Assembly (NCBI GenBank): GCA_015272395.1
Contig: JACYLQ010000049.1
Location: 1 to 56,986, forward strand
Source: Calothrix sp. C42_A2020_038
GTDB lineage: Bacteria > Cyanobacteriota > Cyanobacteriia > Cyanobacteriales > Nostocaceae
Length of the DNA stretch: 56,986 nt
Direction of reading: 5' to 3'
Position 1 is the first letter of the stretch. Every line of letters begins with the position of its first letter. Below, in pieces: positions 13,888 to 31,724 of this stretch. Position numbers and translations under genes: made by a program. Below the pieces are notes generated by a model. It was not told the origin of the DNA. It did not search any database and was given only the letters and a program-made list of their open reading frames with translations.

Positions 13888-15336
13888 TTACTTAGCATCA
13901 GCATAAATTTCTTTACCTAGCCGTCTAAATTCATCATCAAGGTAGTATTGCGAGTTACGAATTGATTGACGTAGTTTTACGGCTGGTTCTAAACAATCTC
14001 GATAAAAATCTGTTAGTGTTAGTTGTAAGTGAGGGTAGAGGATTTTTAAAAATCCTGATGCTGATTTAAGGATTGTATTTTGGTCACGGACTGTGACGTT
14101 ATTTTCAAACAGGGTATGTTCTTTTGCGTAAGTGATAAAACTATTGTTTTGACGCAATGAAAGTAAAGCTTCACCAAAAAAGTCCATTTTTAAACCAATT
14201 TGGCAAGCTGCCATTTCTTGTTTAAATTTTGGAATCTCCCATCCTGGGATAATACCTGCAAAGCGGTCTAAAAAGGCTGTTTCACTAAAAAAGTTTGGTA
14301 GCTCGCTAATTAAATTATCTTCGTTGCGTGGTCGTAACTGTTCATCTAATTCTATATTTGCCAACATTACTAGTGAACAGTCACTGGAAACTTCTGCAAA
14401 ACCGGAACGGTTATAACGACCACTTGCTAGATAGTTTTTCAACGGACCAATTATTTCATCGGGTGAGTCAAAAGTTAAACTTTGCACTTCATCGAGAACG
14501 ACTACATCATGGCGCCCTAATAATCCTATTTCTTTAGTGCTACCATTGATAAATAATCGTGCTGGAGTGATTTTACCTCCACTGATCAAAGATACTTTAC
14601 TGCTAATGTTTTCAAAAACAAAGCTTTTGCCTGTACCTTTAGGCGCCAATTCCATGACATGGTAGTTAGATTCTACTAAGGGTAATAACCTCGCTAATAC
14701 CCAAGTCTTTGCTTCTAAAGTATAATCTGGGTGTTCGGGATTAAAACCTATTGAACAAAACAATAAATCTCGCCATTGCTGTGTAGTAAATTTTTCTCTA
14801 CATTCTGCGTAAAGTTTTAAATTAACTTGAGAACATTGAAATGGGTCAAAGTCCATTACTTCCACTGTTCCATCAGGGAGCATAGCTAAATTAATCTTGC
14901 CCCAAACTCCTTGACGTAAAAGCATTTGATAACGGTCTACAATTATAGGAGAAACTTTACAGTCTTCTAAATTTAGCACTTTAATTTGTGCTAAAGGTTC
15001 AGGAATTAATTTACCTCTTGGGTCTATTTTTATACGAACTTGCATCAACGCAATTATTTTCTTGGCTTCTCCTTGAGATAACTCAAACATGATAACGTTG
15101 TAGTCATCTTTACGAGGAAATGCTTTACTTATAAATGTGTTGATTTTTTCTAACTCTGCTGGTGCCAGTTTTCCGATTCCAGGTACAATTTTGTCAAGTA
15201 ACCATTCGGCGACAAAGCTAGGTACACCAGCCGAAGTTAAACCACTTGATGGCAATCGAGTTTTATCAATACAAAGATTACCAAAAACTTCAGTGATTAA
15301 ATGATTATTATAAGTAAAAGTGTCAGTATAATTCAT
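13888..15336 (-). CDS. brxL: BrxL-like AAA+ ATPase lacking the Lon protease domain
   Basis: 482 residues, ATG at 15336. The N-terminal half matches the BrxL_N-type region (NNHLITEVFGNLCIDKTR, PSFVAEWLLDKIVPG, FELSQGEAKKIIALMQVRI). It is followed by an AAA+ core with Walker A PKGTGKS (232-238), Walker B VVVLDE (278-283), a sensor-like VMLANIEL and FLDRFAGIIPGWEIPK. Full BREX BrxL proteins are about 680 residues and end in a Lon-like protease domain; here the chain stops near the end of the ATPase part. It is the last gene of the operon, 53 bases after pglW-pglZ, with a hairpin in the gap. In BREX, BrxL supports defence as a DNA-binding AAA+ ring; the precise role here is inferred. Confidence 0.8.
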   Translation of the reverse strand: MNYTDTFTYNNHLITEVFGNLCIDKTRLPSSGLTSAGVPSFVAEWLLDKIVPGIGKLAPAELEKINTFISKAFPRKDDYNVIMFELSQGEAKKIIALMQVRIKIDPRGKLIPEPLAQIKVLNLEDCKVSPIIVDRYQMLLRQGVWGKINLAMLPDGTVEVMDFDPFQCSQVNLKLYAECREKFTTQQWRDLLFCSIGFNPEHPDYTLEAKTWVLARLLPLVESNYHVMELAPKGTGKSFVFENISSKVSLISGGKITPARLFINGSTKEIGLLGRHDVVVLDEVQSLTFDSPDEIIGPLKNYLASGRYNRSGFAEVSSDCSLVMLANIELDEQLRPRNEDNLISELPNFFSETAFLDRFAGIIPGWEIPKFKQEMAACQIGLKMDFFGEALLSLRQNNSFITYAKEHTLFENNVTVRDQNTILKSASGFLKILYPHLQLTLTDFYRDCLEPAVKLRQSIRNSQYYLDDEFRRLGKEIYADAK

Positions 15337-15360
15337 AAAAATCTTGCGGGAGTTTGGAAA

Positions 15361-15381
15361 CCCCTAGTTTAAAACCAGGGG
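15361..15381 (-). promoter_or_regulatory. intercistronic hairpin between pglW-pglZ and brxL
   Basis: On the transcribed strand CCCCTGGT...ACTAGGGG forms an 8-bp stem with one G-U pair and a 5-base loop, 8 bases past the pglW-pglZ stop and 24 before the brxL start. There is no following T-run, so it is more likely a processing or stability element, or a partial terminator lowering brxL expression, than a full terminator. Confidence 0.45.
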
Positions 15382-15389
15382 AGGGTCAA

Positions 15390-18300
15390 TTATAATAAAT
15401 CCTCTACACTAAAACCACTATCAAATAATTGTTCAATAACTATGCTAGAGTCATTAGATATAGTTACACTTTTTGTTTCAGCGTTGGCAAATTGAAACGT
15501 TAATTCACCAGTTAATGGCAAAATATCTCCTTGATGATTCAAAGGTAACGATGGTACAAAAATATCAATATTGAACGTTAATTTAGAGTTTGCTAAAACT
15601 TTGATTGCTAGAGGTTGTTCTAATTTACTTATTTCGTTAATACCTAGCGAAAGGTTTGTAAGAGGTACAGAGTTTGGGTTATCAATGGTAATAGTTAATT
15701 CTCCCTGTTTATTAGCTTCTCCTTTTCCACTACATGTTACTAGTACGGGTAGACGCGGGACTGATGTTCGCAGTACGGATACTCCAACTACAACTTCTTC
15801 TGGAAATAACCCACCATGAGAACCAATAATTTTTTTATCAGTTGTGTAGTTAAATGCACCAAGACTAGCGGCGCCTTTAACAACGCTGATATCATGAGGC
15901 AAACCATAACGCTCACGGTCTAAAACTACAAGACGCTCATCATTACTTTTACCTATAGCCATTCTGCCTTTTGTATCTAATTTATTACCACTGGGAAGTA
16001 TTTGGTCTGAAATACCTAACATTTGACCGTGGTCACTAGCAATTACTATTTGAAGATTTTCAGGTTGCTGATATTTTTTTACAAAAAATAATATTTCTTT
16101 TGCAATACCTTCTAAAATATAAGGGCGCTTATTATTGTAAAGATGTTCCCAGTCGCGTTCATGGTGATAAAGTTCATCAAACTGTTGTGTGTCCCAGCAA
16201 TATAGTTGGTGTTTACGAGATTTTAAATCTTTTAGTAGCTCTGCTTTACGATTATCTGTATAGCGTTTTCCTAACCCCATTTTTGCAAAACCTTTCCCAG
16301 CATCATTAACCCATGAAGCATGGGAAGGCAATAGTTGAGTATACAAACTCCATTTAGCATACTCTGTTTTGGTTGGTAAGATGCTAAAGCGAGGTTCAAT
16401 GTAAGACTCTATAGCAAGTTGATTATTTTTTGTGAGGTAAAACAATAGTTCTATATGGTCTAACCAACCTAACCCATCAACCACAACCCACAGTACAGGG
16501 TTTGACGAACAAAGATTTTGGACATTATATGCAACGCTATAGTTAAGCAGTGAATTTTCCACCGTGTCAAATTTTAGTTGTGGGTAGTGTTCTAATATCC
16601 ACTGAACAAAACTATCCGCTAAACGGTCGCTATTTCTTTGTCCATATGGTTTTTGCTCAACAACAATTTCCCAACGACGGAAAGGAAGATAATTTTCTGT
16701 TACCCAACTTAGTGCTTGCTTTGGACTTGCATCTATTGGCAGTGGTTCGGGTTTTGGTGGAGACTGTTTATCACGTAATGTTACTTGCTGTTGAAAATCA
16801 AGGTAAGGAGCAATTTTATTTTCTCTAACCTTATTAAGGAAACCAGGTCTATTTTCAAAAACCTTGTAAGCAAGGTTTGCGATTCGCTTGAAACCTAGTT
16901 GCTGACTTGTTATATTTATATCGTCTAAACTTTTAGCTTCTGTGCGGTATAACTTTTCTGTCCAATAATCATCAAATTCTTTTTCTAAAATATTGGTAAT
17001 TTCTAATGGATACTGAGGTAACTCGGTAATATTTGGCTCTGCAATACCTAACCAACGACGTAAGAATCCTAATTTGTCGTCAGTTTGATAGTAAACAGCT
17101 AATTCGTGTTGTAATTTTTGCTGCCACACTTTTTCTAATATTCTGTATTCTTGTGGGACTTGTATTGTAAGCCAAGCTGCGAGATTTTCAACCGAAGGCG
17201 CCTCCAGCCATATTTTTCTATCGGTTTGTGTTACATCTGCTAATAAGTGGGCAATTGGATTTTCTTGTGGATAAGAATCAAGTTTTGTTACAAGAGTAAG
17301 AAGTTGTGCTTCTGTCCACTCGTCTGGTACAGCTACAGGTTCAAATAGTCGCGCGATACGAAGACGAGGACTCTGCTTTTCTTGAGCTATCAAGTTTAAT
17401 TTATCCCAAACTAGTAACCATTCTTTTGCCCAGTCACACAGGCGCTGACCTTTAATCCAACATGGTGAGTTAGTTGTACCAAAAGACCTCATCCATTCAA
17501 CTTCTGTCGTAATGGGTACATAACCAGGAGGAATTTCGTATACCCCTGTAGGGTCAAGAACTATCGGTTTATCTGGGAAAGACCTCTCCCCCGACCCATC
17601 TCCTATGAGGAGAGTGGAGTAGTTTTCCTCCCCCTTCCCTTGCTGGGAAGAGAGTTGGGGGGTTAGGTTTTTTGCATCTTGTTCTTTTTCTGGTGCCAAT
17701 ATAGATATAACTTCTAATTCCGAAATATTATTAATAGCTGTTATGATATCTTCTACAGAATTAAACCTATCTTTTCTGTGTGGTGCAATCATCTGCATAA
17801 GTAACTGCACTAATTCATTACTTAAATTTTCACAACCAGAAATTGCATGAGGATGAATAGGTAACTTACCTCGTGGTGGTTGCGCTTCTTCAAAAGGATA
17901 ACGACCTGTGACACACTCGTAAAAGACTATACCTAAAGCATACAAGTCACGGTCAATCTTATCCTGTAATTTTAAATTTTCTGAAAATTTCCAATCCGGT
18001 GGTACATAGCGTAATGTACCAGCATTTACGTCGGTTTCATCACTATCAGATACCGCAATATTAAAATCAATTATTCGTACACCGTTTTGAGTTAAAAGAA
18101 GATTAGAGGGTTTTATATCTTGGTGAAGAACTTTGTGCTTATGCAAATGCAACAAACCCTCAGCAGTTTGCTTGGCTACTTCAACAGCTTGTATTAAAGA
18201 GATATTTTTACTTTCAATCAGACTTTGAATATCTTGTCCTTCCAGATATTCAAAAAGAATAAAAGGAGTACCATCTTTTAGAGAATCACTCCAAATTACC

Positions 18301-19946
18301 TTAACAATATGAGGATGTTCAGGAACTTTTTGTAGTGTTTTATATTCTTGTCGTACCCGCTCGTACAAAGAATATCTATCGCGAGTAACTAACTTTATTA
18401 CTCTTTCTATATCACCGATAGTATCCAATACATGATATGCAATAGCAAAGCTACCAGGGCGCCCTAATTGTTTAATAACTCGATAACGGTCATCAATAAT
18501 ATTATCGGCTTTCAATTTTGATATATCTATATTTATAGGTGCTGGTGCGGCTATTTTACTTAACTCTTTGAGTGCGGCGCCTGCATTTGAGTAACGGTCT
18601 AGTGCATCAAAAGCACACATTTTTTGCAACCAGTTATCCCATTGGGTTGAAAGTTGAGGGTTTAGTTGAGATGGTTTAACAGGAAATTCAGCGCTACATT
18701 CATAAATATGCTCGGCGCTATTAAAAGCAGGAGTATTCGTCAGTAGTTCATAAAATACAAGTCCCGCCGAAAAAAGGTCTGAAGCAACACTTGCTTGTCC
18801 AGGGTCACTTTGACATTCGATAGCTTGATACGCAGCATACTTTTCAAGCTCCTCTATGATATCTTCTGCAATAGTACTAGTGCGGTTAGAAACACGCGCG
18901 TAATCAAAACCAATCAATCGCGCTTGTCCTTCGGATGTAACCAAAATAGTATCTGGGGTTATATTGCGATGAACAATCTTATGCTTGTGAATATGTCTTA
19001 ACCCGCGCAGAACATCTTTGATAATAGATAGTTTTCTTTCCCAATTAAGACTTTGCTTTTTGATGTGTTGACTTAAAACCTGTCCCTTCACATCCTCTGT
19101 CACCATCACCAAGCTATTATGTTCCGGACTTTCAAAACAGTCTTGTATACCTAATATATTTTGGTGTGATGGCAGTTGCCCAAGTGCAAGCATTGCTGTA
19201 GTAATTAACCTGTATTGTTCCTCACGTTCTGCAGGTTCTAATAATGGGTCAACTTTATAAACTCGCAAACGCGCGGTTAAACCACTCATACCCATAGTGG
19301 TTTTCTTCACACGATATTCTGTATATTGTCGCAGTTCATCTGAACTAAGTTTTTCTTCTACTTGCCAGTTATGGTAGCGGAGCTGCGCTGATTTTGGCTT
19401 TGATTTACCCCTTATTGCTTGTTCAACGAAAGATATATAACTTTTAATATCTATATAACGATATTTAGGAATATAAGACTTATCTTTAAAATATTGAATA
19501 CAGCGTTTATCTAAGAATGTTACATGGGCGCCGTCTTTGCCAGCATAGTCAGTTATCTTAAGATTTACATCTGTCATTAAAACAGATGCTTGAATATGAA
19601 CTTTTTGCAACTCTTGTGTTCTGGCACGGTTAGTATCACAAATTGCTGTACTAATAACTTTTGCGTGCTTTCTTAACTTCTTTAATGGTGAAGTAAAAGG
19701 TTGATAATTATCAGGGTGCCAGTTAGGGTCATATATATCAATATTACCATGCCAGTTTTTTATATCTACAACATACACACAATGTGGTGTCAGGATGATT
19801 AAGTCTATTTCATAGATTTCCACACCTTGGCTAATCTCTAAATTAGTAAATAGTTTATATGAGTCAGGTAAGTGCGCGCGTAAATAATCAAAAGCTTTAC
19901 GTTCGGCTTCGTTCTCAGGTTGACCGATAGAAAACAGTTCAGCCAT
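15390..19946 (-). CDS. PglW-PglZ fusion: NERD nuclease domain, two protein kinase domains, PglZ domain
   Basis: 1518 residues. Residues about 8-135 form a NERD domain with a PD-(D/E)xK core (EID at 46-48, VVDIKNW with D61 and K63). Kinase-like domain 1 (about 215-465) has HRN in place of HRD (326-328) and GFD in place of DFG, so it is probably a pseudokinase. Kinase domain 2 (about 488-745) has VIK K518, HQDIKPSN with D610, and DFN with D627, and looks active. Residues about 757-795 are a repeat-derived linker. The PglZ domain (about 1090-1400) has alkaline-phosphatase-like metal motifs VVVDGLG (D1157) and IASDHGQM (D1305, H1306). PglW (NERD plus kinase) and PglZ are separate proteins in type 2 BREX/Pgl systems; here they are one chain. 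Its ATG overlaps the pglY stop by one base (TAATG), implying coupled translation. Confidence 0.85.
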   Translation of the reverse strand: MAELFSIGQPENEAERKAFDYLRAHLPDSYKLFTNLEISQGVEIYEIDLIILTPHCVYVVDIKNWHGNIDIYDPNWHPDNYQPFTSPLKKLRKHAKVISTAICDTNRARTQELQKVHIQASVLMTDVNLKITDYAGKDGAHVTFLDKRCIQYFKDKSYIPKYRYIDIKSYISFVEQAIRGKSKPKSAQLRYHNWQVEEKLSSDELRQYTEYRVKKTTMGMSGLTARLRVYKVDPLLEPAEREEQYRLITTAMLALGQLPSHQNILGIQDCFESPEHNSLVMVTEDVKGQVLSQHIKKQSLNWERKLSIIKDVLRGLRHIHKHKIVHRNITPDTILVTSEGQARLIGFDYARVSNRTSTIAEDIIEELEKYAAYQAIECQSDPGQASVASDLFSAGLVFYELLTNTPAFNSAEHIYECSAEFPVKPSQLNPQLSTQWDNWLQKMCAFDALDRYSNAGAALKELSKIAAPAPINIDISKLKADNIIDDRYRVIKQLGRPGSFAIAYHVLDTIGDIERVIKLVTRDRYSLYERVRQEYKTLQKVPEHPHIVKVIWSDSLKDGTPFILFEYLEGQDIQSLIESKNISLIQAVEVAKQTAEGLLHLHKHKVLHQDIKPSNLLLTQNGVRIIDFNIAVSDSDETDVNAGTLRYVPPDWKFSENLKLQDKIDRDLYALGIVFYECVTGRYPFEEAQPPRGKLPIHPHAISGCENLSNELVQLLMQMIAPHRKDRFNSVEDIITAINNISELEVISILAPEKEQDAKNLTPQLSSQQGKGEENYSTLLIGDGSGERSFPDKPIVLDPTGVYEIPPGYVPITTEVEWMRSFGTTNSPCWIKGQRLCDWAKEWLLVWDKLNLIAQEKQSPRLRIARLFEPVAVPDEWTEAQLLTLVTKLDSYPQENPIAHLLADVTQTDRKIWLEAPSVENLAAWLTIQVPQEYRILEKVWQQKLQHELAVYYQTDDKLGFLRRWLGIAEPNITELPQYPLEITNILEKEFDDYWTEKLYRTEAKSLDDINITSQQLGFKRIANLAYKVFENRPGFLNKVRENKIAPYLDFQQQVTLRDKQSPPKPEPLPIDASPKQALSWVTENYLPFRRWEIVVEQKPYGQRNSDRLADSFVQWILEHYPQLKFDTVENSLLNYSVAYNVQNLCSSNPVLWVVVDGLGWLDHIELLFYLTKNNQLAIESYIEPRFSILPTKTEYAKWSLYTQLLPSHASWVNDAGKGFAKMGLGKRYTDNRKAELLKDLKSRKHQLYCWDTQQFDELYHHERDWEHLYNNKRPYILEGIAKEILFFVKKYQQPENLQIVIASDHGQMLGISDQILPSGNKLDTKGRMAIGKSNDERLVVLDRERYGLPHDISVVKGAASLGAFNYTTDKKIIGSHGGLFPEEVVVGVSVLRTSVPRLPVLVTCSGKGEANKQGELTITIDNPNSVPLTNLSLGINEISKLEQPLAIKVLANSKLTFNIDIFVPSLPLNHQGDILPLTGELTFQFANAETKSVTISNDSSIVIEQLFDSGFSVEDLL
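17575..17670. repeat. pyrimidine/purine-rich cyanobacterial repeat translated in frame
   Basis: The segment contains CCTCTCCCCCGACCC...GAGGAGAGTGG...CTTCCCTTGCTGGGAAG...TTGGGGGGTTAGG, with internal inverted arms (CTTCCC/GGGAAG; CTCCT/AGGAG). It is the style of short repeat usually found between genes in Nostocales. Here it lies inside the pglW-pglZ gene and encodes residues about 757-795 (NLTPQLSSQQGKGEEN...), exactly between kinase 2 and the PglZ part. Confidence 0.7.
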
Positions 19947-22900
19947 TAGAACTCCTCCGTTGTATTCGCGTGAATCTCAGCTAACCTTCTAAGTAAAACC
20001 TCACGTGTTTCGCGCGGTAACTGCTGGAATAAAACAATAATCTCACTTTCCGTATTTTTATTCTCAATACCTTCACAGTAGATAATAATTTGCTCTAAAC
20101 TCTCTTTTTGCTCTGCTGGTAAAAAGTTTTCATGCTTACTTCTTTCTGTTTGAATTTTCTTCAAGAGGTTGCTAGCATTATTAATATTTTTGTTTTCATT
20201 AGAATCTTCTTGATTTGACATTTGATTAAGTAGCGCATTTAACCATTGTTTCGCAGCTTCTATTTGCTTGTTTTCCAGTTGGCGCCGTCTTTGCTCCAAG
20301 TCCCGAAGCATTACATCAAAGTGAGTTTGTACAGTAGTTGTGATTTCTCCATGATTTTGGTGCCAGTTTTGTAACCGTTCTATTTCTTGTACACAGTTAT
20401 CAACTGTATCAACTTTTCGATCAGCATAAATTTGTAGCAGGGTACTAAGAGTAGTTAGCTCCGAACTCAGTTCTTGATAGCTTTGTTCTTCTGGAGAGTC
20501 TATATAAAAAGATGACTTCCTAGTTAGTTCATCTTGAAGCTTTTGAACTTCTTTCGGGTTTGTTACATTACTTAATTTTTCCTTAATGTCATTAAGCTGG
20601 TCAATATAAGCTTGTATTTTATTTGCAAGATTGGCTTTTAATTGATTAACTTGATGATTGAAACGTTCAGTATTATGTAAACTAGCTTCATCTTGAGTAA
20701 TAGTTTCTAAAGCACTATTACAAGATGCAATTGAGTTTATTTGTTTACAAAGATTATCCCAACGGTTAATAAGTTGTATGTCTTCTGCTAATGAATCAAT
20801 AACATGTCCAAATTTCTGATAATTACTTTGTTCATTAGAGTTGCTAAATATATAACTTAACTTTGCATATTCTGTCTTAATCTTGGTTATCTCTTGAAAT
20901 GTTGTAACTTTGGACAATTCGTTGCGTAAGTTGTTGAGTTGTTTATTATAACTCTCTATTTTTGCTTGAAAAGCTTGAACTAATTTATCTACCTCCTTAA
21001 TAAATTTATCTGGGTGGTTCAAATTAGCTCTCAAATTATTTACACTCTCAATTGCTTCTTCACACAATTGAATTGTACTGGCATTTTGTGGTGATTTTTG
21101 GCGAATAGCTGTAATAGTTTGTTTATCTTGCTCATGCTTCTGAAATTCTTCATGCTGAGTTTGCAGAGAATCTTCAGCTTCGTGTAAGTCATCAGATAAT
21201 CTCCTAAAATCATCACAAGTGCGAACAAACTCTCTGATTTCTCGCAAGTCTCCTTGCAATTTTCGGTAGTCAGATATTTGACTTATTGGCTGTTCACATT
21301 TCTCAAAAATTTGAGATATTTTTTCTCTGACCAAATTATTAAGCTCAGATTGTAACTTTTCTAATTCTGCTGGCTTATTTTTCAGTGCGCTAGCTTTTAT
21401 CTGAACAGGCAATTTTAGCTCATTTATTTCTTTATATGCCTTAAAAATATCATATAATTCCTTTGTATTTTTCGCATCTGCTAATTTACGTCTTGCAGTA
21501 TCAAATGTATAGTTAATATCTTCCGCTTCTCTATCCTCATGATCACGCTCTAATATTATGTCATCCAATCGACAGGAAAGCTGATCCAATCTTTGTTTAC
21601 AGCTTTCGTCAGTCAGACGTGGACTTAATCGAATTATTTTCTTATTTAGGTTGTTTGCCAAAACTTTTGACATAGACGAAGAAAACTCGTTCTCACAATC
21701 AGAGATTTCTTGAATAAGAGCTTCCTTTTGTGATTCTATTTCTTCAATAATAGTTTTGTAGATGTCTTTTTCTCTTACAATAGGTACATCTAAAACTAAA
21801 TTTTCTATCTGATCTTGAATATCATCATACAGGCTTTGTGTCGCCAACGCATTTAAAGAACTATAAAGTCTTTGTATTTCATTTATACAATTGTCGATTT
21901 TGCTTTGCTCTGCAATGTCTAATAATTTACTATCACTCGCTTGTGCTGCTTTTTGTAGCTGTTCTACAAATCGAGTTGGTAAGTAAGTTGTTTGAGAAAC
22001 TTTAGACTCAAGTTTATTTATGTCAGTTTTATAGGTTTTACATTCAGATTCAGTTTTTAATAAATCTACGCGCGCGCACTCCTGATCTATAATTTGCCCT
22101 ATTTTTTCAATCACATCGTTTACAGCTTTTTGGCGCCTGTCTTCTTGCTGCTGTGTGGGTTGTATAGAAAATTTTTCTTTTGAGACTTTGTTTAAGGGAT
22201 TTTGCAAGATTTCAAAAATATTAAGCAAAACCTGAATGTCTATACCTGTAGATAAATTATCTTCTTGAAGAAGATTTTCAGCTTCTGCGACAGGTGTGAT
22301 TAAAGTATCAATTTGTGCGGCGCCTGTTTTAAGCATTTGCCAATCGCTTTTTATTTGGTCAATTTTATCGGCATCTTGCGCGGTTGCGAGATAATCATTA
22401 ATCTCCTGAATAAATTGCTGCGCTTCGTCGTAGTTAAGAGAATTTGGTATTTGAGGGTAGGGGGTTGGCTTGCGACGAATTATGGAATTTTGCCCATTTT
22501 TTACCCAAACATTGACAAAATCTTTTGGTTTCTCAAAAACATTCGTAGATGCCCAACTTTTGACTGCTTCTTTACGTATTGTCACTTGGTCTGACCTTTT
22601 CTGAGGAATACCAAACCCGCCATTGATTGATAATTCTGAACGGTGATAAGCCAGCCAACCAGCAAGCAAAATTGTAAAAGTATACTGATTATAACCAAAA
22701 GGAGGGTTAGAAAGAGTTTCCCAGATTGCACTAACTTTAACAATCTTTTCTGGGTCTTGACCTAAAGCCATTAAATTAGATATCTCGTCCCAAGCTACTT
22801 TGATGTTGCGATTGCTTGGAATATTGACAACATACTTTTGATGTACTACTTTAAATAATCCCCAAGAATTAGTAAAAACTTGGTCTACAACCGTTTTATA

Positions 22901-25354
22901 GCTTTTATCAGGAAAAACTTGAGGCAGAGAATCATTTTCTAAAAGGCATTTTGACAAATAACCAATAACTTTACCGCCTGTTGAATGACCAAAATACATT
23001 TTGTCATTATTATTTACAGTTGGAACAAACCGATATCTGTCCTCAAGCATTGCACTAACAACTTTTGAAATATCATTACGTTCAGCAATAGGTATGTTAT
23101 CTAAAACGTAACAGTGGTAAATGCAAGATTTAAATAACTCTGTGGCAATGTTGTTAATTTCCTTATCGTATATTTTTTTAATTTCACTTAAAGCAGTATT
23201 ATCGTCTTGATGCCGCATATTTTCTACGACTCCGTACTCCATTAACTTAGTAGCTAACTTATCGATAGGTTGAGAAATAATCGCTAAAATAATTTGACCT
23301 TTTATTGGGGAACTTTCTAATAGCTGCTTTACTTCATCACGAAACTCAGATAACTGTTCTTGAGTTTCTGCAATAACATAAGCTACTACCCCAGATGCAT
23401 CAATACCATCAAGAGCTTTGGGGTTTTGCAAAGCTTGTTTAAGTCTCGTTATAGTGTAGATTTTATTTTTGTATTTCCAATCTTCATTACGTAGACAATT
23501 TTTAGTTATAAATTGAGTTGGAATTGTAGTTTCGTTACCGACAAGTTTACTAATTTCAGTTTGGCAAAAATTGACAACTTTTTCTAGTGAAGGGAATTTG
23601 CCAGTTGTCTGCTCTTTGATTTTCCTTTTAATTTCATCAATTCCAAAACCATTAGAATGAAAACGATAACTATTGTCTGCTTCATTGAGATATATAATCC
23701 CTCTCTTTTCATACAATATATCTAAAGTTTCTCTGGTTTTCTTTGGTGATAATCCAGTTAAAAGGCTTAAAATCTCTTCATGCTTTTCTTTATCTCCTTT
23801 AACTATTTTTCCGTTACTAGTATAGAAAAGTAGTAAAGCCTTTAATATTAAGAATTCTTCTAATTTCGCATCGGCAGAAGCTTCCACTTTATTAACTGAA
23901 TAAGTATAATCTGAAAAAGCTGTTGAAAATCCTGAGTTATCAGCAGATTTAGAGAAATTACTTTCAAGCGCATCAACTAATTCAACTGGGTAAAGGAAAT
24001 TGATACAATCATTAACTTCAACAGGCTGGTGTTGAATAAAATTATTAACAGTTTCTTGAACAAACTGAATTGCTCCACGACCTTGAGTAAAATCTAAATT
24101 ACATAACAAGTAAGATGTTAAAGGATGTAATGGGAAACAACCTAATGTGATATCTTTTTTAAACTTATCTAGTTGCCAGTTACGATTCTGATAGTATTTA
24201 TTTGTTCGATTTTGAAAAATTTTATTGTTAATATCGTTTAATGTATCTTGCCATTTCCTTTCAAAAGCTTGCCATGCTGATGTTTGAGTCTCCTGACTAA
24301 GTAAATTATTTAATACTGACTCTAAACTTGTAGCAGGTTCATAAGTACTTTGTTGTATCTCAACTCTGGAAACTAATCGATTATAATCTTCAACGTTTTT
24401 GGACGGAATAACTAGTCCGGGTTTTCGTTGAGTTAAGCTAAGTAAACTTATCTTTCCTTTATGGTTTCCGCAAATATTAGTTATATTTTGTAATGTTGTT
24501 CCCCCTGCTGCAATAGGGTCAGTTGACCAATTTTGTAAATAGTTATAAAGTTCATCAAATATAATTAAGATTCCATTAAAACGGCTATCGTGACCTGTAC
24601 ACAACTTTGCGATTAAATCTATTAGAATATCTTCAACGTCAATATCCGCATCAAAATCTGGTCTAATTTTATCAACTCTGTAACAAATTTCTTTAACACG
24701 ATTAACAACTTGGTAGTCGTTTTCTCGTAAACAGTCAATAATATTATTAATATCGCCTTCTGGATACCCGATTTCTTCTAAATATTCTTCTGCTAATTTA
24801 CGCTTTTCTAAAGTTAAATCTTCTAAATACTGAAGAGGTTCATTGCAAATTCTGTGAGCTATTACATCAGTTATTCCTTCTCGATTTAAACTTTTTTTCA
24901 CAGCTTGTATAAACTGCCTTTTAAGGTCTTTATCGCTTCTGTCACCACTTAGACAAATTACTAAAGTTCTGCCTTGCTGTTTATAGTGCTTTAAAGCTTC
25001 CAAGATTTGATTATTGCTAGAAGTTGCAATCTCAACTTGATTTAAAACCCCTTGAGCTTCAGGACTATCATAAGGTTTCTGAAAAAAGTTTGCAATTGCT
25101 AAGGCAAAATGTGATTTTCCCTTACCATAATCCTGTACCATTAAATGGATATTCGGTTCATTCGGACTATGAAAACCACGTCTTAATGCATCTAATACAC
25201 CAACAGTAGAAGCTTTAACATTGTTTGAGTCATAATTAAAAACAAAACCTTCACATAGTCGCAAATTTTTTTCAGGGTCATCCATTAACCCAAAGTTAAC
25301 GGCATTTGCAACTATTGCTTTTTGATTAATTTTAACAAGTTGACTTAAATACAT
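19946..25354 (-). CDS. pglY: PglY/BrxC-family P-loop ATPase with long coiled-coil tail
   Basis: 1802 residues, ATG at 25354. The N-terminal region (NAVNFGLMDDPEKNLRLCEGF, VGVLDALRRGFHSPNEPNIHL) and the Walker A DYGKGKSH (75-82) with Walker B ILIIFDE (262-268) match the BrxC/PglY ATPases that are the core of every BREX system. The middle (about 300-1050) continues the family-specific region. From about 1060 to the end the sequence is dominated by heptad-like Leu/Glu/Lys/Gln, a very long coiled coil. Typical PglY/BrxC are about 1200-1300 residues, so the tail is an extra 500-700. It follows the small 25415 gene by 60 bases. The coding sequence is AT-rich and poor in GGCGCC. Confidence 0.82.
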   Translation of the reverse strand: MYLSQLVKINQKAIVANAVNFGLMDDPEKNLRLCEGFVFNYDSNNVKASTVGVLDALRRGFHSPNEPNIHLMVQDYGKGKSHFALAIANFFQKPYDSPEAQGVLNQVEIATSSNNQILEALKHYKQQGRTLVICLSGDRSDKDLKRQFIQAVKKSLNREGITDVIAHRICNEPLQYLEDLTLEKRKLAEEYLEEIGYPEGDINNIIDCLRENDYQVVNRVKEICYRVDKIRPDFDADIDVEDILIDLIAKLCTGHDSRFNGILIIFDELYNYLQNWSTDPIAAGGTTLQNITNICGNHKGKISLLSLTQRKPGLVIPSKNVEDYNRLVSRVEIQQSTYEPATSLESVLNNLLSQETQTSAWQAFERKWQDTLNDINNKIFQNRTNKYYQNRNWQLDKFKKDITLGCFPLHPLTSYLLCNLDFTQGRGAIQFVQETVNNFIQHQPVEVNDCINFLYPVELVDALESNFSKSADNSGFSTAFSDYTYSVNKVEASADAKLEEFLILKALLLFYTSNGKIVKGDKEKHEEILSLLTGLSPKKTRETLDILYEKRGIIYLNEADNSYRFHSNGFGIDEIKRKIKEQTTGKFPSLEKVVNFCQTEISKLVGNETTIPTQFITKNCLRNEDWKYKNKIYTITRLKQALQNPKALDGIDASGVVAYVIAETQEQLSEFRDEVKQLLESSPIKGQIILAIISQPIDKLATKLMEYGVVENMRHQDDNTALSEIKKIYDKEINNIATELFKSCIYHCYVLDNIPIAERNDISKVVSAMLEDRYRFVPTVNNNDKMYFGHSTGGKVIGYLSKCLLENDSLPQVFPDKSYKTVVDQVFTNSWGLFKVVHQKYVVNIPSNRNIKVAWDEISNLMALGQDPEKIVKVSAIWETLSNPPFGYNQYTFTILLAGWLAYHRSELSINGGFGIPQKRSDQVTIRKEAVKSWASTNVFEKPKDFVNVWVKNGQNSIIRRKPTPYPQIPNSLNYDEAQQFIQEINDYLATAQDADKIDQIKSDWQMLKTGAAQIDTLITPVAEAENLLQEDNLSTGIDIQVLLNIFEILQNPLNKVSKEKFSIQPTQQQEDRRQKAVNDVIEKIGQIIDQECARVDLLKTESECKTYKTDINKLESKVSQTTYLPTRFVEQLQKAAQASDSKLLDIAEQSKIDNCINEIQRLYSSLNALATQSLYDDIQDQIENLVLDVPIVREKDIYKTIIEEIESQKEALIQEISDCENEFSSSMSKVLANNLNKKIIRLSPRLTDESCKQRLDQLSCRLDDIILERDHEDREAEDINYTFDTARRKLADAKNTKELYDIFKAYKEINELKLPVQIKASALKNKPAELEKLQSELNNLVREKISQIFEKCEQPISQISDYRKLQGDLREIREFVRTCDDFRRLSDDLHEAEDSLQTQHEEFQKHEQDKQTITAIRQKSPQNASTIQLCEEAIESVNNLRANLNHPDKFIKEVDKLVQAFQAKIESYNKQLNNLRNELSKVTTFQEITKIKTEYAKLSYIFSNSNEQSNYQKFGHVIDSLAEDIQLINRWDNLCKQINSIASCNSALETITQDEASLHNTERFNHQVNQLKANLANKIQAYIDQLNDIKEKLSNVTNPKEVQKLQDELTRKSSFYIDSPEEQSYQELSSELTTLSTLLQIYADRKVDTVDNCVQEIERLQNWHQNHGEITTTVQTHFDVMLRDLEQRRRQLENKQIEAAKQWLNALLNQMSNQEDSNENKNINNASNLLKKIQTERSKHENFLPAEQKESLEQIIIYCEGIENKNTESEIIVLFQQLPRETREVLLRRLAEIHANTTEEF

Positions 25355-25414
25355 TTGATAACTTTACCTGTTTATATTTTATATAAATATTTATGATTTA
25401 TTATTTATTAGTTA

Positions 25415-25846
25415 CTAGTCAATATATTTAACGCGGTTTTCATCCCAATCAGTTGGCGCCAATTTACGGGGTAGTATTATCCAAAGGACACTTTCTAGAT
25501 GTCGAGTAGTATCAAGGTTTTTCCAAAAAAAAGTAAGTTTTGCCTCTGGTTCTGTGCGTAAATAGGTGATTAGGCAATCAAATTCACAGAGTAGCACAAC
25601 AGGTTTACTTCTGTTCATGCACATATTTTTAATTGCGTCTAGTTCACGAGCTAGATGCAAATGCAATTTTAAGAAGCGACTTGTTGCTGGTGTGCGACTG
25701 ATCAGATTGTCCCGATAACTAATGCGCTCGGCATTTTCGTACAAAGCAAGTTGTTTTAAATCCAAATCATTTGTATTATCCCACAGTAACAAATGGGGAC
25801 GGTCACTTGGTCTTGCTTCACGTAATCTTAAATCATTGATTTGCAT
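25415..25846 (-). CDS. small BREX-associated protein, BrxF-like (143 aa)
   Basis: I do not firmly recognise this protein. The hydrophobic strand followed by acid (VVLLCEFDCLITYLR) looks like a Walker B or sensor strand, and SVLWIILPRKLAPTDW resembles a sensor-1/arginine region. There is no Walker A. This pattern and the size recall BrxF, a small ATPase-like protein of other BREX types. The start at ATG 25846 overlaps the end of the DUF4007 gene by 14 bases, and pglY begins 60 bases after its stop, so it is clearly part of the operon. A role as adaptor or regulator of PglY is a guess. Confidence 0.65.
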   Translation of the reverse strand: MQINDLRLREARPSDRPHLLLWDNTNDLDLKQLALYENAERISYRDNLISRTPATSRFLKLHLHLARELDAIKNMCMNRSKPVVLLCEFDCLITYLRTEPEAKLTFFWKNLDTTRHLESVLWIILPRKLAPTDWDENRVKYID

Positions 25847-26660
25847 ATGCTTTTTCCAACAAGGTCATTGGGTCATCCCAACGACGGATTATTTGTGCAG
25901 GAGAAACCGCGCGTCTTTGCTCAATTATTGCTAATATCTCCATCTGGTTTAAACAACTTTGGAGAGTTGAAGCGTCAATGCCCAGAACAGGCGCCAGTCC
26001 CATTTTCTGATTTAAAATATCATCAGTCAGAACTGAAGTTGTGGCGCCAAAATCACGTTCCCACAGTTTGGCGAGAAAATATCCAACTAAATAACAATTC
26101 TCTAAGTTAGTGTTGTAAGCATAATATTCATCACCTTGCTTAGTCAGAAAACCACAAGATGCTAGAGCATAAGGTTCTGTATATGCGCGTAATATAAAAG
26201 AGAATCTCTGAGAAATTACATCACTCTTTTCCTCAAAAATTGCTGAACCACAATTGAGTAAATCTGTAGCTGTAAATACTTTATATTGTGGCAGAAAAGT
26301 GTAAATGAAATAAGGCCAACCACCCCAGTCATCTGGTATATTCGGTGGTTTCTGTAATCCTTTACTTCCAAAAGATAAATAAAAATGTATTATCCAACAT
26401 GTTATATTTGATTCAAGGTAAGGGTCTAATTTACAGACAAGTTTTCCCTCTGGGGTTAAATACTTCCCTTTTACCAACCCTCCCCGTTCTGCCCAGCTTT
26501 TGATTTTTCCAACTTTTGCATTTCCTAAATTGGTTCTTTCCATCAAGCTCTCAAGCGTATCATCTAAAGCTTTTTCTTCACTAGCTGCTTTGAGGATTCT
26601 ACTAACTTCCTCCCTTTTGAAAGCAAAGGTTCCATTGAAATGCATTTCTAATCGAGCCAT
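25833..26660 (-). CDS. DUF4007 family protein
   Basis: 275 residues, ATG at 26660 (a second Met is at residue 6, MHFNGTFAF). The opening HFNGTFAFKREEVSRIL, the central NITCWIIHFYLSFG...WPYFIYTFLP, and the C-terminal winged-helix-like IDASTLQSCLNQMEILAIIEQRR agree with DUF4007. That family occurs next to PAPS-reductase-like (DndC/BrxP) genes in phosphorothioation-linked and type 4 BREX loci. No such sulfur enzyme is present here. As first gene of the operon it may act as a DNA-binding or sensing component. The region 26661-27363 upstream should hold the promoter; no specific boxes were recognised. Confidence 0.75.
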   Translation of the reverse strand: MARLEMHFNGTFAFKREEVSRILKAASEEKALDDTLESLMERTNLGNAKVGKIKSWAERGGLVKGKYLTPEGKLVCKLDPYLESNITCWIIHFYLSFGSKGLQKPPNIPDDWGGWPYFIYTFLPQYKVFTATDLLNCGSAIFEEKSDVISQRFSFILRAYTEPYALASCGFLTKQGDEYYAYNTNLENCYLVGYFLAKLWERDFGATTSVLTDDILNQKMGLAPVLGIDASTLQSCLNQMEILAIIEQRRAVSPAQIIRRWDDPMTLLEKAYANQ

Positions 26661-27363: not shown

Positions 27364-30300
27364 TTAGTAGTCCTCTTCTTCTCCTTGAACAGGAGGGCGC
27401 CCGGAAACTATGATAAAGCCAACAGAGTCAAGACGAATGTTTGGGTGGCGAATACCCTCTATTATTGCTTGATTTAGTTTTGCTTCTTCAATCACTTCTT
27501 GTGTTAGTGTTTTGTCGATGATTTTCTCTTGTAGTTTGATACGGTTAAGACGTAAACGCAGTTGTTCGAGTCGTCTACTCAATTTTTGTTCAGCGTGTGC
27601 AGCAGCTTTTTCACACTGTTCAATAAAACTAGCCTGACTAAGGAGTAATTCTACAGAAGTGTTGCGCGCATCGCGACAAAAATTTTGCCATTCATCTGGG
27701 TCTACAAAATTATCAAGAATTGACAAACGGCTTTTTGCCAGGTTGTAATCTTGATTTACGGCGCCTTTAGTTGGTGTTTTACTAGGTTTAATAGGAGACT
27801 TACCTTTGGCTCGATAAGGACGTTGTAAAATATCCAAAAGCGGCTTGTCTTCAACAATACTCATTGGCTCGTTTCGCGCGTCGATAAATATGCTCTGTAT
27901 AATTGGAGGGAATAAACTATCCGCGCGACGTTGTAGTGCCTTGTACTTAATTGGGTCTAACTTGTAGCTAGTTAAATCGGTTTCGATTATGTAATCAAAT
28001 CGAAAACCAAACCACTCCATACCTTCCCCTGCATCCCAAGAATCATCAACTCGCCACATTGCGAATGCTTGACCTCGGTCATCCCAATGTATATAAGATG
28101 ACAGTGAATCTATCAGTCCTTCGCCAATTCGATAAAGGTTAACATGAGGTTTTTGATTTGCAACTCTGCGGTTGTAAGTACCCACATCATTTGTTAACCC
28201 AACGAAATAAGTTCTTAAATCATCGATGGGTATTAGTGTTTTTGATGTTGGCTCATAACGTTGTGCAGCTTGTATATTAGGGTCGTTAAGTTGCTTTAAC
28301 CGCAAAGCGTTACATATCCAATCTTCAGTAACTCGCTCAATTTCTTGATGTTTGGCATCAAAATCATCCAAGCTTTCAAAATACTCGCTAGCTGTTTCAT
28401 CAAAAGCATCGATTTCATCAAGAGCGTTTTGTTCTTCAATTTTTACAAGTTCGGCGCCTATTTCCTGTTTAACTTGCTCTATACTCTCCAAAAGCCCATT
28501 TGCTCCTGACTTAAATAAAGTTGCTTCCAACTGTGGTAACTTCTCATCGACGTAAAATTGGAAACTCGCGATCGACTGCTCGAACACATTAAAGCCATCT
28601 TTTAACAGTTGATACCAAGCATCATGCGGACTATCATCTATCTCGGCGCCTGCAAATACAGTAAACTCGACATTCAACTGGCGCCCAATACGGTCAATTC
28701 TACCAATTCGTTGCTCTAAGCGATTTGGCGACCAAGGTAAATCAAAGTGTATCATTGCGTCAGCAAATTGTAAGTTACGCCCTTCCTCTCCCGAATAGTC
28801 ACAAACTAGAGTAAAGCAGTTAGCATCATTTTTGAATCGATCAAGACTTTTCTCAACTTGCGCGCGCGCTTCTCCAAATTGATGACTGGCAATTGCAACT
28901 TCACCAAAGCTATCTCGTAAAAACTTGACGATTTGACCGCAAGTTTTCACATAACTCGTAAATATGACAATTTTTGGTAGTCTATCCCCAGGAACTGGTC
29001 TTTTCAGTCGTAATTGGACTTGTTCGAGTAACTTGGGTAGGTTACTGCGGAATGATTGGAGTTTAAAGTTTTCTGATAACTTGTAAAGTATTACTATTCT
29101 CAGTAACACTAAACGGTCGCCATCTTCTGATGGTTTGTCAAGGACTCGTATTATACCTTGTAAAATCTCTACTTCCTTATTGAACTTAGGTGTTTTGACA
29201 AGGATATTTAAACTATCAGCGTCAAACTCTTTTGTCAACTCCTGCGACAAAATACCCCTCAAACGTGAGGACACAACTAGATGTAAAATACCTAACCAAG
29301 TACCACTCGCCCGAAACAATAGCAAAAAGATGCGTTGGTACTCTGAACTATCAGGCGCAAGTCCACGCCATTCTTCGATTAACTCGTGCAGGTCGTAAAC
29401 ACGCTCATCTAAATCATACTCAGCTTTCGGCGCCACATTACGATCAAAAATCACATCCTCTACTGACGCACGTCGATTACGGAGCATTCGACGAAACAGT
29501 CTATAAGTATCGCTGATGTGAGTCCTAATTACTCTAACTATTTTATTTGCTTGATTTGTGTCGCTATTTTGTAAAGAAGTTTGTAGTTTTTCTGCCAAAT
29601 CTAATAAATATTTATCATCAGGAAATAAACTGCAAAGTTGTGTAACCTGATTTTTGAGAACGAAAGGATTTGCACCTTCCTTAAACGACAGTAAAACTCT
29701 ACCAATATCTTGGCGTTTTGCTACCCGTTCACGAAATCCTTCCAAATCATCTAATTTATAACTCGTTGGGTCAAGCAAATGCAACATCGCCAAAAAATCC
29801 TGCTCATTGTTCACAACAGGAGTTGCTGACAGTAACAGTAAGCGTTCAGACTGGTGAGCAAGCGTTTTGAAACTTCCAAAGCTACTACGCTGTGCTGCAT
29901 TGGAAGACCTTGCCATTGCTGCAACATGATGAGCTTCATCTATAATCAACAACCCAATATCTGCCTTGGTATTGACTTTATGGACATCCTCAATCGCTGA
30001 TACTACTACTCTATCGGGAAAATGCGAAAGGTAGAACTTATTCTTCAATTCAGTACGCCATTGTTCGATTAAATATTGTGGTGCCAATACTACCGCACGT
30101 CTTTCCGGCTCATCGAGTAAATATTGACGCAAAATGGCGCCTGCCTCAATAGTTTTCCCCAGTCCCACCTCATCTGCTAGCAAATATCTTTGAATAGGGT
30201 CTTCGAGTACCCGACGCACCACTTCAACTTGGTGACGCAACAACTCAATATTTGCAGAAATCAACCCCGTCATTCCCCGACTAACCGCACGCTGCAAAGT

Positions 30301-30711: not shown

Positions 30712-30920
30712 AGCGGTAGTCCCACATCTACTTTTGCACAAACCTTAAATAAGATATCTCTTAAGTAACTGTTAATCAACAATATATATTAACGCAACGT
30801 CGCGTTTTTTGATGATTTTTAAGTAAAATTCAAATACTCTGTAGCAATAAATTTTACAATAATATTGTCAGTATATAAAACCTTAGCAAAAAGTTCTATT
30901 ACTTATTTGGGGAATGTAAC

Positions 30921-31724
30921 GTGGAGTTAAAATTAACACGTCCGTTAGTATTTATTGATTTAGAAACAACGGGAGTAGACGTTAGTCAAGACAGAATTGT
31001 ACAAATTGCTGTTTTGAAGGTATTCCCAGATGGAAAAGAAGAGAGGAAAAAGTTTCTACTCAATCCGACTGTTCCGATTCCTCAAGCTGCGTCAAACGTG
31101 CATAAGATATATGATCAAGATGTTAAACAGGCACCTACTTTTGTTGATATAGCTGCAAATTTAGCACAATATATTAATGATAGTGATTTTGCTGGGTTTA
31201 ATTCTAATAAGTTTGATATACCTTTATTGATGGCAGAATTTTCACGCGCGGGTATTGATTTTAATCTCGAAGGTCGAAAATTTATCGATGTACTAACAAT
31301 ATTCCACAAGATGGAACCACGTACTCTGAAAGCTGCCTACAAATTATACTGTGGTAAAGAATTAATCGGCGCCCATGATGCAGAAAATGATATTTTTGCA
31401 ACATATGAAGTTCTCAAAGCTCAACTTCTTCGCTATCAGAATGTAGCGTATGAAGACAAAGAAGGAAATATTTCTTATCCTGTAAGTAATAATTTAGATA
31501 CTTTAGCTAGTTTTACACCCTTTAATTTAATTGACCCCACAAATAAAATAATTTTAGATGACCAAGGTCGAGCAATATTTAATTTTGGTCAATATAAGGG
31601 TCAAGTAATATTGGATGTATTTTCAAAGAAACCAGGGTATTATCATTGGATGATGGAAGCAGATTTTTCGATTTTTACTAAAAGAATAATCAAGCAAATT
31701 TGGGAAAGTATAAAAAAAGACTAA
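30921..31724 (+). CDS. DEDDh 3'-5' exonuclease (DnaQ/ExoX-like)
   Basis: 267 residues from GTG 30921, preceded by GGGGAA at about 8 bases. Exo I is FIDLETTG, Exo II AGFNSNKFDIPLL and Exo III GAHDAENDIFAT (HDAxxxD), giving all four acidic residues and the DEDDh histidine. The C-terminal segment FNFGQYKGQVILDVFSKKPGYYHWMM matches the small domain seen after many ExoX-like exonucleases. It is probably a DNA-repair or defence-associated single-strand DNA or RNA exonuclease. It is divergent from the helicase gene with about 210 bases between starts, so both may be controlled from that gap. Confidence 0.85.
   Translation: MELKLTRPLVFIDLETTGVDVSQDRIVQIAVLKVFPDGKEERKKFLLNPTVPIPQAASNVHKIYDQDVKQAPTFVDIAANLAQYINDSDFAGFNSNKFDIPLLMAEFSRAGIDFNLEGRKFIDVLTIFHKMEPRTLKAAYKLYCGKELIGAHDAENDIFATYEVLKAQLLRYQNVAYEDKEGNISYPVSNNLDTLASFTPFNLIDPTNKIILDDQGRAIFNFGQYKGQVILDVFSKKPGYYHWMMEADFSIFTKRIIKQIWESIKKD

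What the first reader, a model, noticed from the sequence alone, without database searches (positions are those of the whole stretch)
13888..26660. BREX/Pgl-like defence operon with no methyltransferase and no PAPS reductase
Seen: five contiguous minus-strand genes (DUF4007; small BrxF-like; PglY/BrxC ATPase; PglW-PglZ fusion; BrxL-like AAA+) joined by a 14-base overlap, a TAATG overlap and gaps of 53-60 bases. Known: BREX types are defined by PglZ plus BrxC/PglY; types 1, 2 and 3 carry a PglX methyltransferase, and type 4 carries the PAPS-reductase-like BrxP. Here PglY, PglW and PglZ point to type 2, while BrxL and DUF4007 point to types 1 and 4. None of the usual self-marking enzymes is present. 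Inference: a hybrid or new BREX type that either uses a modification enzyme encoded elsewhere or tells self from non-self another way, perhaps through kinase signalling.
Basis: partly seen in the sequence, partly recalled or inferred. Interest (0 to 1): 0.88.

Follow-up and report, generated by a model that had tools for sequence, protein, structure and literature searches.

The report
Restriction cassette partnered with sulfur-marked DNA
A cyanobacterium carries a five-gene cassette, related to the BREX antiviral family, that has no DNA-marking enzyme of its own; many of its relatives sit beside or inside gene sets that mark bacterial DNA with sulfur, so it probably spares sulfur-marked DNA and attacks unmarked viral DNA.

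Summary
The five-gene operon is real and as described. Profiles do not make it a PglY/PglW type 2 BREX: the ATPase is closest to SspC, the NERD-pseudokinase-kinase half of the fusion to MAD6, and PglZ and BrxL match other PADLOC models than true type 4 BREX does. BrxP was not found.

Relatives supply the missing mark. Of 49 distinct cyanobacterial cassette loci, 16 lie beside sspB/C/D phosphorothioation (PT) genes and 3 beside a cysteine desulfurase only; 12 lie beside dnd genes, 9 of them between dndE and dndD; 18, the window included, show neither in the stretch read. Of four complete non-cyanobacterial sets three are ssp-linked; the fourth has a methylase. The window's genome has a complete dnd operon on another contig and no SspC or SspD.

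Best reading: a BREX-like restriction module for PT marks, probably first paired with Ssp, once lodged inside dnd, here perhaps relying on Dnd in trans. Linkage in relatives is shown; mechanism and use of Dnd marks here are inferred. Genome-level co-occurrence with dndC is uninformative (p = 0.42 within the order). New variant of a known kind.

The parts
25833..26660 (-). DUF4007 protein (275 aa), likely DNA-binding (BrxA/SspB-like)
   Evidence: Pfam PF13182 34.3 bits, cut-off 27; PADLOC SspB 30.8 bits
25415..25846 (-). small BrxF-like protein (143 aa), P-loop-like fold without Walker A
   Evidence: no profile hit; conserved in the family; model pLDDT 89, weak match to AAA+ folds
19946..25354 (-). 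SspC/BrxC-like AAA+ ATPase with coiled-coil tail (1802 aa)
   Evidence: PADLOC SspC 66 bits, BrxC 11 bits; hhalign to SspC 99.1%, to type 4 BrxC 92.4%
15390..19946 (-). fusion NERD - pseudokinase - kinase - PglZ (1518 aa)
19593..19913 (-). NERD nuclease-type domain (aa 12-118), D48/D61/K63 kept
   Evidence: PF08378 67 bits; 12 of 12 NERD-kinase sequences
18549..19166 (-). pseudokinase (about aa 261-466; HRN and GFD in place of HRD and DFG)
   Evidence: second stretch
17760..18485 (-). Ser/Thr-type kinase domain (aa 488-729), K518, D610, D627 kept
   Evidence: PF00069 203 bits
15393..17576 (-). PglZ part (aa 791-1518), metal site kept
   Evidence: PDLC02549 96 bits; invariant residues in 14 aligned sequences; PorX and BREX PglZ matches
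13888..15336 (-). BrxL, short form (482 aa)
   Evidence: TIGR02688 435 bits, cut-off 329; PDLC02507 430 bits
27364..30741 (-). DpdE-like SNF2 helicase, possible accessory of this lineage
   Evidence: PADLOC DpdE 802 bits; upstream of the cassette in L100 and L104 too
30921..31724 (+). DEDDh exonuclease, possible accessory or mere neighbour
   Evidence: PF00929 80 bits; similar gene beside DpdE in L100 and L104

Best explanation
The operon is a BREX-like restriction module whose self-mark is DNA phosphorothioation (PT) made by separate genes. [quoted passage not shown] In the window PglZ carries in front a NERD nuclease, a pseudokinase and a kinase, read as a second nuclease and a phosphorylation switch. 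The cassette was probably first paired with SspBCD; in one clade it sits inside the dnd operon; in the window's lineage it stands alone and the only PT maker found in the genome is a dnd operon on another contig. Shown: gene content, kept catalytic residues, purifying selection, linkage to ssp and dnd in relatives, dnd present and SspC, SspD and BrxP not found in this genome. Inferred: that it restricts phage, that PT is its mark, that Dnd supplies the mark here, and the role of each subunit.
For: SspB, C or D flank 16 of 49 distinct cyanobacterial cassette loci, a cysteine desulfurase alone 3 more; dnd genes flank 12 of 49, with dndE on one side and dndD on the other in 9. Three of four complete non-cyanobacterial sets (L132, L137, L154) are ssp-linked. 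On the ATPase tree the dnd-linked rows form one group (7 rows, SH-aLRT 94, just under the 95 that the program stars) and the outgroup and several deep branches are ssp-linked. G382 has the cassette inside dnd, and SspD and SspC were not found in it, so there Dnd is the only PT system seen. Of the 18 loci with neither neighbour, 16 genomes were tested and all 16 have DndC, one of them in pieces. Own dnd operon: DndC 698, DndD 671, DndE 127, TIGR04096 684 bits, all over cut-off. SspD, SspC and BrxP not found. dN/dS 0.09-0.24 against L104 and L100. [quoted passage not shown]
Against: In the window nothing links the cassette to dnd physically. Within the order dndC is nearly universal (86 of 98 non-carriers), so its co-occurrence is no evidence (p = 0.42). 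The dnd insertion looks like one event, not many. SspFGH toxicity was relieved by ssp genes but not by dndBCDE of Salmonella (PMC8092258, passages), so a switch of marks is not free. A fourth complete non-cyanobacterial set (L140, Clostridium) has a type IIG-like methylase and no DndC, and L104 has a 919-aa methylase (45-47 bits) beyond the DpdE gene, so methylation is possible in some relatives. Several relatives are broken or lack most of PglZ (L017, L100, L097, L098, L129). There are no phage or DNA-chemistry data.
Confidence: 0.55

Rival explanations
1. The cassette is a PT writer, not a reader: DUF4007 and the SspC-like ATPase act like SspB and SspC and place sulfur at a second motif, borrowing sulfur from SspD or DndC, with PglZ and BrxL attached as in type 4 BREX.
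For: DUF4007 and ATPase resemble SspB and SspC; the cassette lacks a PAPS reductase but often lies next to one.
Against: Most ssp-linked relatives already have their own SspB and SspC beside the cassette; PglZ, NERD and kinase sites are kept, which a pure writer would not need.
Confidence: 0.13
2. The system uses no DNA mark: the kinase or the iSTAND-like protein senses a phage product and unleashes the NERD and PglZ nucleases as a suicide response.
For: Kinase catalytic residues are kept in 12 of 12 sequences; 18 of 49 loci have no modification genes in the stretch read.
Against: Most cyanobacterial loci lack the kinase (34 of 49 without it; several of these are cut contigs); it does not explain linkage to ssp in three outgroup sets and the position inside dnd.
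Confidence: 0.13
3. It is a stripped or hybrid type 4 BREX that lost BrxP, in substance already known.
For: BrxL, PglZ, DUF4007 and an SspC/BrxC-type ATPase are type 4 components, and type 4 is PT-based (PMC12839542, section 34). PMC12839542 may have counted some ssp-linked loci as type 4; I could not see its supplements.
Against: True type 4 proteins hit other PADLOC models; the PglZ profiles match at only 24.7% over 57 columns; true BrxP was found in 2 of 198 Bacteroidota genomes and in none of 21 distinct carrier genomes.
Confidence: 0.12
4. The mark is a methyl group made by a methylase encoded elsewhere.
For: L140 has a methylase beside a similar set; L104 has one beyond DpdE; the dnd-associated putative methyltransferase TIGR04096 is present in the window's genome.
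Against: No methylase was found among the scanned neighbours in the window or L100; the common neighbours of the family are PT genes.
Confidence: 0.07

Closest known systems
BREX type 4 (BrxP, BrxC, PglZ, BrxL)
   Same: short BrxL, PglZ, DUF4007, SspC/BrxC-type ATPase, tie to PT (PMC12839542, sections 19 and 34)
   Different: BrxP not found in any of 21 distinct carrier genomes; separate DUF4007 and small BrxF-like genes; other PADLOC models for PglZ and BrxL; PT genes are ssp or dnd; in some members NERD-kinase is fused to PglZ
SspABCD with SspE or SspFGH
   Same: SspB, C, D and a cysteine desulfurase flank many relatives; restriction module separate from the modification module
   Different: restriction module built on PglZ and BrxL; SspE occurs in addition in L114, L116 and L128; SspC and SspD not found in the window's genome
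Dnd (DndBCDE with DndFGH)
   Same: one clade has the cassette between dndD and dndE; the window's genome has dndB-like, C, D, E
   Different: the cassette is not DndFGH; PMC8569181 (passages) reports dndFGH absent from Cyanobacteria
BREX type 2 / Pgl (PglW)
   Same: order NERD, pseudokinase, kinase (PMC12839542, passage)
   Different: PglW score 201 bits, cut-off 990; no PglX seen; PglZ follows the kinase
MADS
   Same: kinase half passes the MAD6 model, 691 bits, cut-off 460
   Different: no mad family hit for the other four proteins at E 0.001 in PADLOC or 0.1 in NCBIfam; no MADS paper was read, its gene content is recalled
BREX-related capture (BRC) systems
   Same: PglZ, BrxC-type ATPase, DUF4007, STAND-like protein, Dpd link (PMC12839542, section 36)
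   Different: BRC keeps a HerA/FtsK translocase throughout; none was seen beside the window's cassette, which has BrxL and a kinase

Membership tests
BREX (any type) | PglZ | tested here: met
   Pfam's own PglZ model PF08665 gave no match in the genome
BREX (any type) | BrxC/PglY ATPase | tested here: inconclusive
   hhalign to type 4 BrxC 92.4%, PADLOC BrxC only 11 bits, SspC scores higher
BREX type 4 | BrxP (PAPS reductase) | tested here: not met
   in 22 handles (21 distinct genomes) only the PAPS or ferredoxin part matches, best 55.6 bits; true BrxP gives 949-958 bits
BREX type 4 | type 4 PglZ and BrxC families | tested here: not met
BREX type 4 | short BrxL | tested here: met
   482 aa, TIGR02688 over cut-off
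BREX type 4 | PT modification of host DNA | not testable with these tools
   needs DNA chemistry; dnd genes are present
BREX type 2 / Pgl | PglX methyltransferase | tested here: not met
   none among 26 scanned window ORFs; genome PF07669 hits only in ORFs of 515-521 aa
BREX type 2 / Pgl | PglW | tested here: not met
   201 bits against cut-off 990
Ssp system | SspC and SspD in the genome | tested here: not met
   met in G207 and G352
Dnd modification | DndC, DndD, DndE in the genome | tested here: met
   contig C13, not the contig of the cassette
Dnd restriction | DndFGH | not tested
   no genome-wide search made
MADS | MAD6 kinase | tested here: met
   NF047741 691 bits
MADS | the other MAD proteins | tested here: not met
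   no mad hit for the other four operon proteins; not searched genome-wide

The most novel reading that the evidence does not exclude
A further restriction partner of DNA phosphorothioation, not described in the papers I could search: a five-gene BREX-like module that can work with Ssp or with Dnd sulfur marks and has moved between them, in the window with its PglZ nuclease fused to a NERD-pseudokinase-kinase switch. It would be a restriction arm for cyanobacterial Dnd, which has been reported to have none.
Probability: 0.4. Interest if true: 0.78.

Novelty: new variant of a known kind. Interest (0 to 1): 0.62.

Why it matters
Two printed puzzles become testable. Wang et al. 2021 (PMC8092258, passages read) found that 2,211 of 2,678 sspBCD sets have neither sspE nor sspFGH and suggested undiscovered restriction partners; this cassette is a concrete candidate, ssp-linked in cyanobacteria and in three other groups. 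Jian et al. 2021 (PMC8569181, passages read) report that Nostocales are rich in dnd but that dndFGH is absent from Cyanobacteria, and infer that dnd first served against oxidative stress; a nuclease cassette lodged between dndD and dndE offers a restriction role instead. It also shows the NERD-kinase module joined directly to the PglZ nuclease, besides its places in PglW and in a subset of DndF (PMC12839542, passage).

Tried and rejected
[quoted passage not shown] Genome-level association of cassette and dndC is uninformative: 7 of 7 carriers against 86 of 98 other genomes of the order, p = 0.42; against the whole phylum p = 4e-5, which reflects ancestry. SspD enrichment (3 of 7 carriers against 19 of 379 other genomes, counting the 22 genomes with matches over 400 bits, p = 0.005) has the same weakness. 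A PbeABCD identity was dropped: PMC10853773 (passages) describes Pbe as a helicase-HKD nuclease, a small protein, a CxC ABC ATPase and a DndE. A trade-off between the kinase fusion and extra nucleases (SspE, HNH, Uma2) was looked at and is not clean. The promoter scan upstream of the operon found 6 sites against 3.2 expected and no terminator: nothing to build on.

Limits. The tree is a quick search with long branches, of 45 rows. Dropped by hand were 3 duplicates (L114, L120, L124) and 8 broken or short rows (L109, L122, L123, L126, L127, L131, L133, L153); rows under 100 bits fell out, and L017, L019 and L020 were never put in. Its label 'ssp' includes L113 and L130, which show only a cysteine desulfurase; its label 'none' includes 3 distant non-cyanobacterial rows (L134-L136) and cut contigs. 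In one search the row 'window' was fed a wrong sequence by my script and is ignored. The count of 49 loci is tallied by hand and includes cut contigs, so 'neither' means 'not in the fetched stretch'. L092 and L095 were not tested for DndC. The PAPS-reductase protein of SspD size in the genome of L113 was not verified as SspD. The fourth plasmid hit (an Abditibacteriota record) was not opened. Whether the 457 taxa counted as type 4 in PMC12839542 include ssp-linked loci like these I could not check.

Papers: PMC12839542 (abstract, sections 12, 18, 19, 28, 34, 36, passages); PMC10853773, PMC8092258, PMC8569181, PMC12707154 (passages); PMC12205998 (abstract, passages). MADS gene content, the layout of BREX types beyond what those sections say, and the phylum of Chthonomonadales are recalled. 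The statement that the arrangement is not in print rests on search listings 30, 31, 39, 50, 90, 105 and 106 and the passages named, in an open-licence library.

Full report
Observation. The window is the whole of contig C7 (56,986 bases) of a 6.53 Mb genome in 50 contigs; the nearest relatives of the locus are in Calothrix. G+C over the cassette is 0.32-0.39, elsewhere in the window 0.35-0.47.

What the proteins are. The 275-aa protein is DUF4007 (34.3 bits, cut-off 27) and faintly SspB. The 143-aa protein hits nothing; its model (pLDDT 89) is an alpha/beta fold whose best PDB matches are AAA+ ATPases (TM 0.43-0.46 for the two with E under 0.001), and the alignment shows no Walker A motif. The 1802-aa ATPase is nearer to SspC (66 bits; hhalign 99.1%, E 7e-19) than to BrxC (11 bits; 92.4%, E 5e-7). 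The 1518-aa protein joins NERD, pseudokinase, kinase and PglZ. Its first 606 residues pass NCBIfam's MAD6 model (691 bits, cut-off 460), whereas PglW gives 201 bits against 990. In 12 of 12 aligned NERD-kinase sequences (three cut or truncated, one split) the NERD D and DxK residues and the second kinase's K, HQD and DFN are kept, while the first kinase has HRN (11) or HRH (1) and no DFG. The PglZ part keeps D367, T404, D467, H471, D515, H516 and H587, invariant in the 14 sequences aligned; L090, not in that alignment, has R at H516. Its model best matches a chain of a BREX complex with PglZ, then PorX. The 482-aa protein is BrxL.

Which BREX type. Two bona fide type 4 loci (L155, L156) were fetched through BrxP, found in 2 of 198 Bacteroidota genomes. 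In L155 BrxC, PglZ and BrxL score 2619, 1276 and 762 bits with PDLC02480, PDLC02550 and PDLC02505, while the window's set scores best with other models. The PglZ profiles of the two groups match only weakly (24.7%, 57 columns; the type 4 profile had 2 sequences). True BrxP was not found in 22 carrier handles, 21 distinct genomes. So it is BREX-like but not a member of type 4 as defined, nor of type 2.

Relatives and their neighbours. The ATPase occurs in 7 of 386 cyanobacterial genomes. A scan of genome contigs gave 52 loci, 43 of them cyanobacterial cassettes or pieces of them. Four plasmid records matched a related PglZ; three were opened. After removing duplicates I count 49 distinct cyanobacterial cassette loci, window included, some cut by contig ends. 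Sixteen have SspB, SspC or SspD in the flank (L090, L091, L093, L094, L102, L111, L114, L116, L117, L121, L124, L126, L127, L128, L133, L152). Three have only a cysteine desulfurase (L113, L130, L153). Twelve have dnd genes (L015, L017, L106, L107, L109, L110, L112, L119, L122, L123, L125, L131). Eighteen show neither. In nine of the twelve the cassette, or its remains (L131), lies between dndE and dndD, in opposite orientation; measured distances are about 97-482 bases to dndE (8 loci) and 6-282 to dndD (6 loci). In the window's genome dndD and dndE are 49 bases apart. Outside Cyanobacteria four complete sets were seen. Three are ssp-linked, in the order sspB-sspC-sspD-DUF4007-small gene-ATPase-PglZ-BrxL: L132 (Hymenobacter), L137 (a Chthonomonadales MAG) and L154 (Thermomicrobium); L132 and L154 have a cysteine desulfurase after BrxL. 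The fourth, L140 (Clostridium), has a type IIG-like methylase instead and no DndC.

History. On a 45-row ATPase tree the dnd-linked rows form one group (7 rows, SH-aLRT 94), ssp-linked rows lie deep and in several places, and context changes 9 times in all. The window groups with L100 and L104 (Calothrix), next with the ssp-linked, kinase-fused L090 and L093. The simplest history is an ssp-linked ancestor, one move into dnd, and several losses of local modification genes, among them in the window's lineage. The root is placed on the outgroup, not inferred.

The mark in this genome. On contig C13 lies a dnd operon: DGQHR/DndB-like 188 bits, DndC 698, DndD 671, DndE 127 and TIGR04096 684 bits, all over their cut-offs. 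SspD is absent at E 1e-10, SspC at E 0.001; the PAPS-reductase domain occurs twice, in a 245-aa protein (CysH-sized) and in DndC. Of the 18 loci with no PT genes nearby, 16 genomes were tested and 16 have DndC, one in pieces; the genome of L113 has none but has a PAPS-reductase protein of SspD size. This proves little: 86 of 98 non-carriers in the same order also have DndC (p = 0.42). The physical linkage in relatives is the evidence.

Is it alive. Against the intact Calothrix orthologue L104, dN/dS is 0.125, 0.18, 0.23, 0.18 and 0.10 for the five genes in operon order, and 0.09 for the DpdE-like helicase upstream. L100 has a broken fusion gene, and several other relatives are broken.

The fusion. 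NERD and/or kinase sequence lies with the cassette in 15 of the 49 cyanobacterial loci, an uninterrupted fusion of 1480 aa or more in 8 (window, L090, L091, L093, L104, L113, L121, L127). It was not seen in the four complete non-cyanobacterial sets. Its presence changes 5 times on the tree, so the module is gained or lost while the five-gene core stays.

Mechanism, with steps marked. Shown by sequence: an AAA+ motor, a metal phosphodiesterase site, a NERD site, one active-type kinase, BrxL, DUF4007. [quoted passage not shown] ssp genes relieve the toxicity of SspFGH (PMC8092258, passages). Inferred: the cassette scans DNA, is held off by PT, and otherwise nicks DNA through PglZ and hinders replication with BrxL; the kinase tunes this and NERD is a back-up. 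The chief rivals are a role in PT writing, a mark-free suicide response, a stripped type 4 system, and a methyl mark from elsewhere.

Literature. Most ssp sets lack a known restriction partner (2,211 of 2,678; PMC8092258, passages), and Nostocales dnd sets lack dndFGH (PMC8569181, passages). PMC12839542 (sections named above) describes type 4 with BrxP often fused to DUF4007 and, in what I read, neither a cassette inside dnd nor a NERD-kinase-PglZ fusion. Search listings 30, 31, 39, 50, 90, 105 and 106 showed no paper on this arrangement, in an open-licence library.

Verdict. Observation confirmed; the inference of an outside mark is upheld and made specific: sulfur on the DNA backbone. New variant of a known kind, interest 0.62.

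Noticed in passing
window 27364-30741 and 30921-31724: A DpdE-like SNF2 helicase and a divergent DEDDh exonuclease lie just upstream; the same pair stands upstream in L100 and L104, the two closest loci, and may be an accessory of this lineage.
   Followed up: partly
L097, L098, L129, L020: In relatives of one clade (three of these loci next to dxr) PglZ is only 215-219 aa; in L020 about the first 64 and last 115 residues remain and the phosphatase domain is gone, while BrxL stays full length.
   Followed up: partly
L083 3679-7868 (own genome, contig C13): Upstream of the dnd genes lie a second DndD-like ABC ATPase (145 bits, under cut-off), two small genes and a protein resembling a PT-DNA-binding restriction endonuclease (125 bits, cut-off 180): perhaps another PT-linked system.
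   Followed up: no
L140: Clostridium lacusfryxellense has a type IIG-like methylase (1091 aa) followed by an SspB/DUF4007-like protein, a 156-aa protein, a BrxC/SspC-like ATPase, PglZ and BrxL, and no DndC: a methylase version of the cassette.
   Followed up: no
L104 53-2812: A 919-aa methylase (type I and mad2 matches, 45-47 bits) lies beyond the DpdE gene of Calothrix sp. NIES-4105; the neighbours scanned in L100 and the window gave no methylase match.
   Followed up: partly
L113 8189-9459: In Pseudanabaena cinerea a XisH-family gene and a DUF4058 gene lie between the ATPase and the kinase-PglZ gene.
   Followed up: no
L152, L153, L154: Cassettes lie on plasmids of Pseudanabaena galeata, Annamia dubia (ATPase broken up) and Thermomicrobium roseum.
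   Followed up: partly
L094, L121, L152: Uma2-family nuclease genes sit between the ssp genes and the cassette in some ssp-linked loci.
   Followed up: no
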